From Candidatus Scalindua japonica (lineage in GTDB: Bacteria; Planctomycetota; Brocadiia; Brocadiales; Scalinduaceae): a DNA stretch of 64,000 bases. This document shows positions 9,778 through 12,531 of this stretch, piece after piece. Location of the stretch: assembly GCF_002443295.1 (NCBI RefSeq), contig NZ_BAOS01000003.1, positions 1 to 64,000 of the forward strand, in the 5' to 3' direction. Numbering within the stretch: position 1 is the first letter of the stretch; each line of letters begins with the position of its first letter. Position numbers and translations under genes: made by a program. The notes under the pieces were generated by a model. The model made no database searches. It was not told the DNA's origin and saw nothing but the letters and a program-made list of their open reading frames with translations.

Positions 9778-10367
9778 CAGCGACATCCGGTTAGGTTTTT
9801 GCGTATACCGCTTTTGTCATACCCGCCCGCCTGTACCTATTTGGGCAGGAATTCCTTTATTTATCGGGTATCTATGTGACGCGTCCAATCTGGATTCCCG
9901 CTTAAGCTTTTCCTCGCAAGCTTTAAGCGGGGAGCATGCCTGCCCGAATAGGTGCCTGTCTCCACCAGAATGACACCCGCCAGAATGACACCCGCCAGAA
10001 TGACATTGTCGGGCTGGTTGTAGGGCTGGCGAACGGCTGGCCGGGCAAGAAGGACGGATAGAAAAAATACGAAAAATAAAATTGCCAAAAATAAAACAAA
10101 AGATAATGATAGTCGCTGTAGGGTGGGCACTGCCCACCAAAAACATTCTACATCCGGAAAAAAAATCGTAGGGTGCGTTTTACGCACCAAAAACATGACA
10201 GCATAATCAAGTATTTGTTTAATATATAACACCATTGCTGTATCCAACGTTGTTAGTGGTGCATAGAATGCACCCTACTTGTTTTTTGGCGAACGGTGGA
10301 GCCGGGCGGGAATGACAGTTTTGGAGCATTAATTTGCAATACGCAAAAAGCTAACCGGATGATGCTG
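9778..10367. mobile_element. MITE-like non-autonomous element with 29-bp TIRs and 9-bp TSD
   Basis: The left end (9778-9806) begins CAGCGACATCCGGTTAGG. The reverse complement of the right end (10339-10367) begins CAGCATCATCCGGTTAGC. The two 29-base ends differ at only three positions. The same nine bases, ACTAAATAT, lie immediately outside both ends (9769-9777 and 10368-10376), as expected of a target-site duplication. No transposase frame is present inside. The 590-bp interior holds three tandem 'CCAGAATGACA(CCCG)' units near 9965-10003 and several perfect palindromes. It is probably mobilised in trans by an unseen transposase. Confidence 0.85.
10118..10278. repeat. Three short palindromes within the MITE
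   Basis: GTAGGGTGGGCACTGCCCACC (10118-10138), GTAGGGTGCGTTTTACGCACC (10168-10188) and GGTGCATAGAATGCACCCTAC (about 10258-10278) are variants of one small palindromic repeat. The second is linked by a conserved spacer (AACATTCTACATCCGGAAA) to the first. The same spacer and palindrome recur at 21228-21320, far from this element. Confidence 0.85.
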
Positions 10368-10457: not shown

Positions 10458-12011
10458 ATGGATAGTAATTTTTCTTACTGGAGAATGGTAATAATAGGTG
10501 TGCTTTCTCTCTTGTTAATTGTTGCCATATCCTTTTTCTTTTATTTTGAACATATATATTTTAATTACAATCCGAAGGAGGCTACCTTCTCTAAATTAGA
10601 AAATATCAGAAACAAAAAAAAAGCGAAAGTAATAAGGTATTTAGACCAGCAGAAAGAGAGAGGGATCAAGGTGTGTCAGAACAGCGATATTAAAGATTAT
10701 TTCAAGAAACTTCTTTATCTATACAGTAATCATGGATATGGAGGTATAGAATATGCCATAATAGAAAGTGTGGTTAACAAGCTTTTTGTGATTGAATTAG
10801 ATAAGTTTTATGATCTTCTCTTTATAGATGCAGAGGGAGATGTTTTCTTTTCTGTCAAGAAGGAAGATGACTTCCTGGGTAACATACATGAAGAACGCTT
10901 TAATGGCGTTTCATTATTTGAAAAGATACGAAAGATACAAACCAGAGAGACAGAGTTTGTTGATTATGAGTATTACTCTATTTCGGATGAACCGGCTTCT
11001 TTTTTTATCACTCCTGTGCTTAAAGCAGACAAGATACAAGGCTATATTGTATTGCAACTGCCGATTAACGATATCAATTGCATATTAACAGAAAGGCAGG
11101 GCCTGGGAAGAACAGGTGAAGTGTATTTAGTAAATTACAATCAGTTAATGATAACACAATCCAGGTTTGTTGAAGATAACACAATATTAACCAAACAGAT
11201 CGATACTGAGGCCGTAAGGAACGCCATATTGGAGAAGAGAGGGAACAAGATAATCAAAGATTATCGCGATAAAAGAGTTTTCAGCTCTTATGAGCAGTTT
11301 GATTATGAAGGGACGGAATGGATTATCGTAGCAGAAATAGATGAAGATGAAGTTATTACAGAAATCTATCTGAGCAGGGAAAAGGAGCTTTTTAACAAAG
11401 TTACTGATTATCTGTCAAAATATTCTTATCAGAATGATATACAAAAGGTATTTGGAAAGGAGTGGAAACAGAAAAACAGTTCTGTTAAGGTTGATTTTAA
11501 GGAGTTTCAAAAGAGTAAAAACGGCCAATCGCTTTATACCGAAGGTATTGCGACATGTACTGCAATGACTATTGGCTATCCTGGCAAATTTGGATATCTG
11601 CTCCATATTACCCCCACAGATGGGTCATACAGGAACGTCGGGTTTCTCACCAGGTTGTTATTAAGAGACAGCTATACTGACTTTGTGGAAAGAGTTATGA
11701 GCGGTATCTGTAGGTATGATATTCTCCAATGTGAGAAATCACAGTTGCGGATTGGTCTTATGGCAACTCATGATGACAGTTTTAAGAATATCATTCGCAA
11801 ACTTACAGAACATGGAGTTGAACTATCTCAAATAAAGGTGCTTTATAAAAAAAATTATCAAAAAGTAGATGTTGTTTTTGATTATAGAAATGATCAGGTA
11901 TGGAGCCTGTGGGGGGGCAAAGGGTTTAAAATGGTCTATACGGATGAATATGAAAATGCCCCTGATATTGGTGAACTAATTAAAAAATTGAGTAATTATA
12001 ACCGAGTATAA
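10458..12011 (+). CDS. Membrane dCache sensor fused to a CheD-like domain
   Basis: ATG 10458 is preferred to an upstream TTG at 10422 because GGAG lies six bases before it; it gives 517 residues. Topology: an N-terminal membrane helix (about residues 10-33), then a periplasmic double-Cache-type sensor with the typical GRTGEVYLVNYNQLMITQS and GTEWIIVAEID segments. About 170 C-terminal residues follow that resemble chemoreceptor deamidase CheD: a small-residue motif with Cys (GIATCTAMTIG) and His about 14 residues later (LLHITP). No second membrane helix, HAMP or methyl-accepting helix is obvious. The CheD match is by pattern only. The cytochrome c'-like gene follows after 25 bases and is probably co-transcribed. 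Confidence 0.7.
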   Translation: MDSNFSYWRMVIIGVLSLLLIVAISFFFYFEHIYFNYNPKEATFSKLENIRNKKKAKVIRYLDQQKERGIKVCQNSDIKDYFKKLLYLYSNHGYGGIEYAIIESVVNKLFVIELDKFYDLLFIDAEGDVFFSVKKEDDFLGNIHEERFNGVSLFEKIRKIQTRETEFVDYEYYSISDEPASFFITPVLKADKIQGYIVLQLPINDINCILTERQGLGRTGEVYLVNYNQLMITQSRFVEDNTILTKQIDTEAVRNAILEKRGNKIIKDYRDKRVFSSYEQFDYEGTEWIIVAEIDEDEVITEIYLSREKELFNKVTDYLSKYSYQNDIQKVFGKEWKQKNSSVKVDFKEFQKSKNGQSLYTEGIATCTAMTIGYPGKFGYLLHITPTDGSYRNVGFLTRLLLRDSYTDFVERVMSGICRYDILQCEKSQLRIGLMATHDDSFKNIIRKLTEHGVELSQIKVLYKKNYQKVDVVFDYRNDQVWSLWGGKGFKMVYTDEYENAPDIGELIKKLSNYNRV

Positions 12012-12036
12012 TGTTAGCTTTAAGGTTGGGAAAATC

Positions 12037-12531
12037 ATGAAACCACATTGGCTTATTGTGCCGTTAATAATATTATTGATACCGCTTTTTATCTTATCCA
12101 GGGACAAGTTTGAGTATAGGGGTGAGATTTCGGACGAGGGGTTAGATTTAAATAAACAAGAGATGAATGTATTGATTCATGAGGAAGAGAAGGAGAATAA
12201 TATTTATGAAAATGTAACCAAATTCAGGATGCATATGAAATCACTTGATGAATACTACGACGCACTGACAGAGTCAATTGAAATTCAGAGCTGGGACGAC
12301 ATATCCAAATATGCATTGATGTTGAAAAACACATCACCATTGATCTTTACAGGGATGAGGAAGGTAGATTTGCCAAAGGATTTTGTGCTTTTAGATACCG
12401 CCTTCCATTTTCAAGCCCTTGCGGTAGTAGCGGCGTGTGAATCAAGAGAGATGGTCAAGATGAATATTGAATATGAGAAATTACAGAAAACATGTGATGA
12501 TTGTCATGAAAAATATAAGGACAGAGAGTAG
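12037..12531 (+). CDS. Membrane-anchored cytochrome c'-like monoheme protein
   Basis: It encodes 164 residues. An N-terminal hydrophobic segment (residues 4-20, signal or anchor) is followed by a helical soluble domain ending in CDDCHEKYK, which is a single CxxCH heme-c attachment motif only a few residues from the C-terminus. This is the position seen in class II (cytochrome c') four-helix-bundle cytochromes. Axial His is provided by CH; a sixth ligand is not evident. It is periplasmic, 25 bases downstream of the dCache/CheD-like gene, suggesting a signalling or gas/redox-sensing pair. Its stop is only three bases from the stop of the convergent oadB gene. Confidence 0.85.
   Translation: MKPHWLIVPLIILLIPLFILSRDKFEYRGEISDEGLDLNKQEMNVLIHEEEKENNIYENVTKFRMHMKSLDEYYDALTESIEIQSWDDISKYALMLKNTSPLIFTGMRKVDLPKDFVLLDTAFHFQALAVVAACESREMVKMNIEYEKLQKTCDDCHEKYKDRE

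What the first reader, a model, noticed from the sequence alone, without database searches (positions are those of the whole stretch)
10458..12531. dCache sensor fused directly to a CheD-like domain, paired with a cytochrome c'-like protein
A single membrane helix and a double-Cache-type sensor run straight into a domain with a CheD-style Cys...His arrangement (GIATC...LLHITP). No HAMP or signalling helices lie between. CheD normally acts as a separate soluble deamidase of chemoreceptors. The adjacent periplasmic-looking CxxCH protein suggests a redox- or gas-linked signalling module. I know of no described fusion of this kind, but I could not search.
Basis: partly seen in the sequence, partly recalled or inferred. 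Interest (0 to 1): 0.6.

Follow-up and report, generated by a model that had tools for sequence, protein, structure and literature searches.

The report
Exported sensor–CheD fusion protein family
An anammox bacterium encodes a sensor joined to an enzyme-like domain with the fold of CheD, the protein that chemically adjusts chemotaxis receptors; the whole fusion appears to sit outside the cytoplasm, and in other bacteria its gene lies beside chemotaxis-receptor genes, so receptors might be adjusted from the outside.

Summary
Window 10458-12011 encodes a 517-aa protein: one N-terminal membrane helix, a double Cache sensor (Pfam E 3e-15), then a C-terminal domain that no Pfam or NCBIfam model names. 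AlphaFold plus Foldseek puts that domain in the CheD / CNF1-YfiH cysteine-hydrolase fold; the best PDB match is Thermotoga CheD (E 1.6e-7). The CheD triad (Thr361, Cys367, His383) is present in all 29 distinct relatives read.

(1) There is no convincing second membrane helix, and relatives carry signal-peptide-like, lipobox-like or anchor N-termini. The CheD-like domain is therefore predicted to lie outside the cytoplasm, out of reach of CheD's usual substrate. (2) The cytochrome c' is a multicopy Scalindua family, adjacent only within that clade, and is not the conserved partner.

The partner suggested by gene order is the chemoreceptor. In 7 of 15 non-Brocadiales loci an MCP gene is the next or next-but-one gene on the same strand, and 25 of 25 carrier genomes checked encode MCPs. 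Best reading: a ligand-controlled, exported CheD-fold cysteine hydrolase working with chemoreceptors from outside. Activity and substrate are untested. New variant of a known kind.

The parts
10458..12011 (+). dCache-CheD-like fusion gene, 517 aa
   Evidence: ORF; full-length relatives in Brocadiales and other phyla
10485..10541 (+). N-terminal membrane helix / signal anchor, residues 10-28; short basic N-terminus in relatives predicts N-in, C-out
   Evidence: hydropathy 2.94 over 19 residues, next best segment 1.18
10572..11342 (+). double Cache sensor domain, residues about 39-295
   Evidence: Pfam dCache_1 75-292 E 3.2e-15; AlphaFold model and Foldseek to 3lid, 2p7j, TlpC and PctA sensor domains
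11343..11420 (+). two helices linking sensor to C-terminal domain, residues 296-321; not hydrophobic
   Evidence: AlphaFold full-length model pLDDT 88; no TM
11442..12008 (+). CheD-fold (CNF1/YfiH-like cysteine hydrolase) domain, residues about 329-517
   Evidence: AlphaFold pLDDT 85, pTM 0.84; Foldseek best PDB match CheD 2f9z_C E 1.6e-7, then NTAN1, YfiH, CNF
11538..11540 (+). Thr361, counterpart of CheD Thr21
   Evidence: invariant in 29 of 29 distinct relatives; in register with 2f9z
11556..11558 (+). Cys367, counterpart of CheD nucleophile Cys27
   Evidence: invariant in 29 of 29; the only Cys in the whole protein in L075 and L085
11604..11606 (+). His383, counterpart of CheD His44
   Evidence: invariant in 29 of 29; Cys-His spacing 16 here, 17 in CheD (PMC7022378)
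12037..12531 (+). TM-anchored cytochrome c'-like protein, 164 aa, same strand, 25 bp downstream; clade-restricted neighbour, not a conserved part
   Evidence: Cytochrom_C_2 25.5 bits vs cut-off 26.5; CxxCH at 12493-12507; distribution

Best explanation
It is an exported, membrane-anchored sensor-enzyme. A chemoreceptor-type double Cache domain binds a small ligand outside the cytoplasm. Through a short helical linker it controls a CheD-fold cysteine hydrolase domain (Cys367 nucleophile, His383 base, Thr361 orienting residue) that lies in the same compartment. The most likely job is to hydrolyse an amide (deamidation or amidase chemistry) on an extracytoplasmic target linked to chemoreception, most probably through a partner chemoreceptor. 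Shown by computation: architecture, fold, triad conservation, absence of a convincing second TM, gene linkage to MCPs outside Brocadiales. Inferred: export (about 0.93), catalytic activity (about 0.7), functional partnership with MCPs (about 0.6), a receptor's outer domain as the actual substrate (about 0.25). In Scalindua no MCP is adjacent and a cytochrome c' sits beside it instead.
For: Fold: AlphaFold C-terminal model pTM 0.84; best PDB match CheD E 1.6e-7, TM 0.66 to target, followed by the same superfamily: NTAN1, YfiH, CNF. Sequence: best of 177,635 PDB sequences is CheD with T/C/H in register, though E is only 0.35; hhalign P 0.0012 to Brocadiales CheD; a scan of 345 genomes of another phylum with the family profile gave one off-family hit, a canonical 162-aa CheD, E 2e-4. 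Triad 29 of 29. Topology: one strong N-terminal hydrophobic segment; signal-peptide-like or lipobox-like N-termini in relatives. MCP as next or next-but-one gene on the same strand in L081, L083, L085, L112, L113, L114, L115, 7 of 15 non-Brocadiales loci; CheW in the L083 and L085 clusters; MCPs in 25 of 25 carrier genomes against 42 of 61 Brocadiales overall.
Against: No activity data. The Pfam CheD model hits no member and NCBIfam CheD models hit a few members only at E 0.04-0.13, so sequence divergence is large. In Brocadiales, including the window, no MCP is adjacent. A scan for CheD-like Gln sites in the outer domains of partner MCPs found no consistent excess. The MCP sensor type found beside the fusion also occurs without it (G702, G709).
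Confidence: 0.55

Rival explanations
1. The CheD-fold domain is no longer an enzyme; it docks onto the outer domain of a partner chemoreceptor and passes on the ligand state of the Cache domain, like a periplasmic binding protein.
For: MCP gene linkage; several linked MCPs have large helical outer domains; CheD itself binds helical receptor bundles (established knowledge).
Against: All three triad residues are invariant in 29 of 29 relatives, which docking alone does not require.
Confidence: 0.18
2. The domain is an amidase for a small extracytoplasmic molecule (amino-acid amide, peptide or cell-wall fragment); the product or its removal is what the MCP senses.
For: NTAN1, in the same fold, acts on peptide termini (PMC7022378), and a YfiH structure holds UDP-MurNAc (7f3v title); the dCache is a small-molecule sensor fold.
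Against: Nearest structure is CheD, a protein deamidase, not YfiH.
Confidence: 0.2
3. A cytoplasmic CheD tethered to a sensor, acting on ordinary chemoreceptors in the usual way.
For: CheD fold and triad; MCP linkage.
Against: No convincing second TM in any family member; signal-peptide-like or lipobox-like N-termini in relatives; a separate canonical CheD gene exists in this genome and in 11 of the 13 Brocadiales carriers.
Confidence: 0.04
4. A redox- or NO-sensing module formed with the neighbouring cytochrome c'.
For: Adjacent same-strand cytochrome in the window and in L066-L068, near it in L069; a short CxxCH protein follows the fusion in L072.
Against: The cytochrome is a multicopy family in all 13 genomes of the genus, including seven without the fusion, and is unlinked in G321; no such gene sits beside the fusion in nearly all other lineages.
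Confidence: 0.05

Closest known systems
CheD, chemoreceptor glutamine deamidase (PF03975; Thermotoga 2F9Z)
   Same: Fold, Thr-Cys-His triad and its approximate spacing, link to MCP genes in several lineages
   Different: CheD is a soluble cytoplasmic single domain; here it is fused to dCache, predicted exported, lacks the CheD Gly-rich C-terminal motifs (FGGA, GG..G) and is not hit by the Pfam CheD model
CNF1/YfiH-like cysteine hydrolases (NTAN1, YfiH, CNF)
   Same: Fold and Cys-His-Ser/Thr active-site plan
   Different: Lower structural similarity than to CheD; other substrates and compartments
dCache_1 chemoreceptors
   Same: Sensor fold; the dCache resembles that of MCPs in the same genomes (e.g. 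G000:C28, L085)
   Different: No second TM, HAMP or MCP signalling domain after the sensor
Stand-alone heme Cache proteins (sCache_heme, PMC12889525)
   Same: Exported Cache proteins without cytoplasmic output
   Different: Single Cache with covalent heme; no enzyme-like domain

Membership tests
[quoted passage not shown]
   Foldseek E 1.6e-7 CheD, 6e-5 NTAN1, 7e-4 YfiH, 2e-3 CNF
[quoted passage not shown]
   register; 29 of 29 relatives; triad definition PMC7022378; model coordinates could not be inspected
CheD (PF03975) | match to the family profile above cut-off | tested here: not met
   no hit in 23 members nor in the own genome at this locus; NCBIfam CheD only E 0.04-0.13
CheD (PF03975) | FGGA and GG..G motifs of the C-terminal half | tested here: not met
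   present in Brocadiales CheD, absent in the family alignment
CheD (PF03975) | soluble cytoplasmic protein acting on the MCP cytoplasmic bundle | tested here: not met
   predicted exported: one N-terminal TM or signal sequence, no convincing later TM; experiment needed to confirm
CheD (PF03975) | glutamine deamidase activity | not testable with these tools
   needs biochemistry
dCache_1 sensor | Pfam match and fold | tested here: met
   56.8 bits vs cut-off 45; Foldseek
dCache_1 sensor | ligand binding | not testable with these tools
   ligand unknown
Cytochrome c' (neighbour) | Pfam match above cut-off and CxxCH | tested here: inconclusive
   25.5 vs 26.5 bits; CxxCH present

The most novel reading that the evidence does not exclude
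Chemoreceptors are covalently tuned from outside the cell membrane: an exported, ligand-gated CheD relative deamidates Gln or Asn side chains on the outer sensory domain of a partner MCP, an adaptation step that does not depend on the cytoplasmic CheR/CheB/CheD system.
Probability: 0.22. Interest if true: 0.85.

Novelty: new variant of a known kind. Interest (0 to 1): 0.62.

Why it matters
CheD is known as a cytoplasmic modifier of chemoreceptor signalling helices. A conserved family with the same fold and intact triad, fused to an extracellular sensor, predicted exported and encoded next to MCP genes in several phyla, suggests that receptors or their ligands may be modified enzymatically on the outer side. 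Clear single-residue mutants (C367, H383, T361) and gene pairs make this testable.

Tried and rejected
Single-sequence searches for the C-terminal domain in Pfam, NCBIfam and PDB gave nothing useful, and a single-protein scan of genome contigs found nothing; only the alignment reached distant relatives. Viral contigs held no relatives. Stand-alone copies of the domain were not seen in 392 Planctomycetota or 345 genomes of the second phylum. CheD-like Q/E consensus sites in outer domains of linked MCPs: no consistent excess over shuffles. Co-occurrence of the multi-repeat MCP sensor with the fusion: strong in one sample (all 4 carriers; 2 of 341 others at E<1e-50), but three of the four genomes supplied the query, and in the fourth the MCP is on another contig. 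Redox module with cytochrome c': rejected as the conserved partner. Cytoplasmic placement: rejected on topology.

Full report
What is in the sequence. The gene at 10458-12011 (+) encodes 517 residues; the cytochrome-like gene follows 25 bp later at 12037-12531. Pfam finds dCache_1 at residues 75-292 (E 3.2e-15) and nothing credible beyond it; NCBIfam and phmmer against PDB also give nothing for the C-terminal part. The window belongs to a Planctomycetota genome of the same order as the known anammox genera (Brocadiales); its nearest named relatives, 67-74% identical over the full protein, are Candidatus Scalindua MAGs.

A real family. The same full-length architecture occurs in 13 other proteins of the order. 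A profile-guided scan of GTDB genomes found 22 loci, including Thiomargarita, Desulfocapsaceae, Desulfobacteraceae, Spirochaetia, Phycisphaerae, Pirellulales, Magnetococcales and Nitrospinia MAGs, all of them dCache plus C-terminal domain, about 490-547 aa. Four more proteins came from genomes of the phylum of the Desulfobacteraceae MAG. It is rare and patchy: 8 of 392 Planctomycetota and 4 of 345 genomes of the second phylum, the fifth hit there being an ordinary CheD.

Fold. AlphaFold2 on the family alignment gives pLDDT 85 and pTM 0.84 for the C-terminal domain and pLDDT 88, pTM 0.83 for the full protein. Foldseek against PDB ranks Thermotoga CheD first (E 1.6e-7, TM 0.66 of target), then human NTAN1, YfiH and CNF catalytic domains: exactly the CNF1/YfiH-like cysteine hydrolases (family description in PMC7022378). 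Sequence alone is weak but points the same way: CheD 2f9z is the best PDB sequence hit, E 0.35, with Thr/Cys/His in register; hhalign to Brocadiales CheD gives P 0.0012 over the same stretch; and the only off-family hit of the profile in 345 genomes is a canonical CheD, E 2e-4, encoded near CheA- and CheC-like sequence by inspection. The triad is T361, C367, H383; it is present in 29 of 29 distinct members, and two members (L075, L085) have no other cysteine. Published triads are Cys27/His44/Thr21 in CheD and Cys75/His92/Ser69 in NTAN1. The C-terminal half lacks the CheD FGGA and GG..G motifs, and the Pfam CheD model does not match. So it shares the fold and active-site plan of CheD but should not be filed as a member of the CheD family.

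Topology. The only strong hydrophobic stretch is at the N-terminus (residues 10-28; KD 2.94, next 1.18). Borderline later peaks (1.6-1.7) in three relatives fall inside the folded domains. Relatives show SPase I-like sites (L081, L083, L077, L114, L115), lipobox-like motifs (L084, L080, Kuenenia and Brocadia) or an anchor (motif inspection, not a trained predictor). For contrast, the nearest own-genome dCache protein, L002, does have a hydrophobic segment after its Cache domain (sequence read). The CheD-fold domain is therefore predicted to be on the same, outer side as the sensor. Canonical CheD is encoded separately in this genome.

Neighbours. In 7 of 15 non-Brocadiales loci an MCP gene is the next or next-but-one gene on the same strand: L112, L113 (MCPs on both sides), L114, L115, L083, L085 (MCP-CheW-fusion) and L081 (a TPR gene between); L083 reads fusion-MCP-CheW; L082 is followed by an HBM-HAMP-PAS gene cut by the contig end. 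With 2-33 MCPs per genome a random gene would show this about 1% of the time; binomial probability about 2e-10, or 1e-7 at 3% (the rates are my estimates, and the loci are not fully independent). All 25 carrier genomes checked encode MCPs, against 42 of 61 genomes of the order overall (hypergeometric 0.004 for the 13 carriers in the order, not corrected for relatedness). Within the order no MCP is adjacent; Anammoxibacter has one about 2.8 kb away on the other strand (L071).

Cytochrome. The window's cytochrome neighbour is conserved in L066-L068 and lies one gene further in L069, but the family has 3-7 copies per genome in all 13 genomes of the genus, seven of which lack the fusion, and in G321 the two genes are on different contigs. 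It is a local neighbour, not the defining partner. A different short CxxCH protein follows the fusion in L072.

Mechanism. The best account is a ligand-controlled exported cysteine hydrolase associated with chemoreception. Several linked MCPs have large helical outer domains, and CheD acts on helical receptor bundles (established knowledge), so outer-face deamidation is conceivable; but others have dCache sensors, and a scan for CheD-type Gln sites gave no consistent excess. The substrate remains open between a receptor domain, a small amide, and no reaction at all.

Literature. The held library (no subscription journals) showed no CheD fusion to Cache and no exported CheD; the Cache survey reports known output domains and does not mention CheD (PMC4822843). 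Absence there is not proof of novelty.

Noticed in passing
L083:6600-9545, L112:2513-5212, L113:8180-10927, L114:4148-6499, L115:3969-6341: MCPs with unusually long (about 400-530 aa) multi-repeat helical outer domains, distantly similar to each other and poorly covered by HBM/4HB models.
   Followed up: partly
L085:6204-7517: A peptidyl-arginine/agmatine-deiminase-like gene (PAD_porph) directly downstream of the fusion in a Nitrospinia locus.
   Followed up: no
L069:2-2938: A histidine kinase with a Tll0287-like (heme Cache, NO-sensor type) domain near the fusion in a Scalindua-related planctomycete.
   Followed up: no
genus of the window; e.g. G000:C34:33904-34665: The cytochrome c'-like family has 3-7 copies per genome, some in tandem.
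   Followed up: partly
L002 (G000:C13): A dCache protein with a hydrophobic segment after the sensor and no output domain, nearest own-genome relative of the sensor half.
   Followed up: partly
L076, L078, L087: In Kuenenia/Brocadia-type genomes the fusion follows a DUF4175 gene and a TPR/peptidase-MA gene on the same strand.
   Followed up: no
window 9960-10005: Short direct repeats (ccagaatgacacccg) in the intergenic stretch upstream.
   Followed up: no
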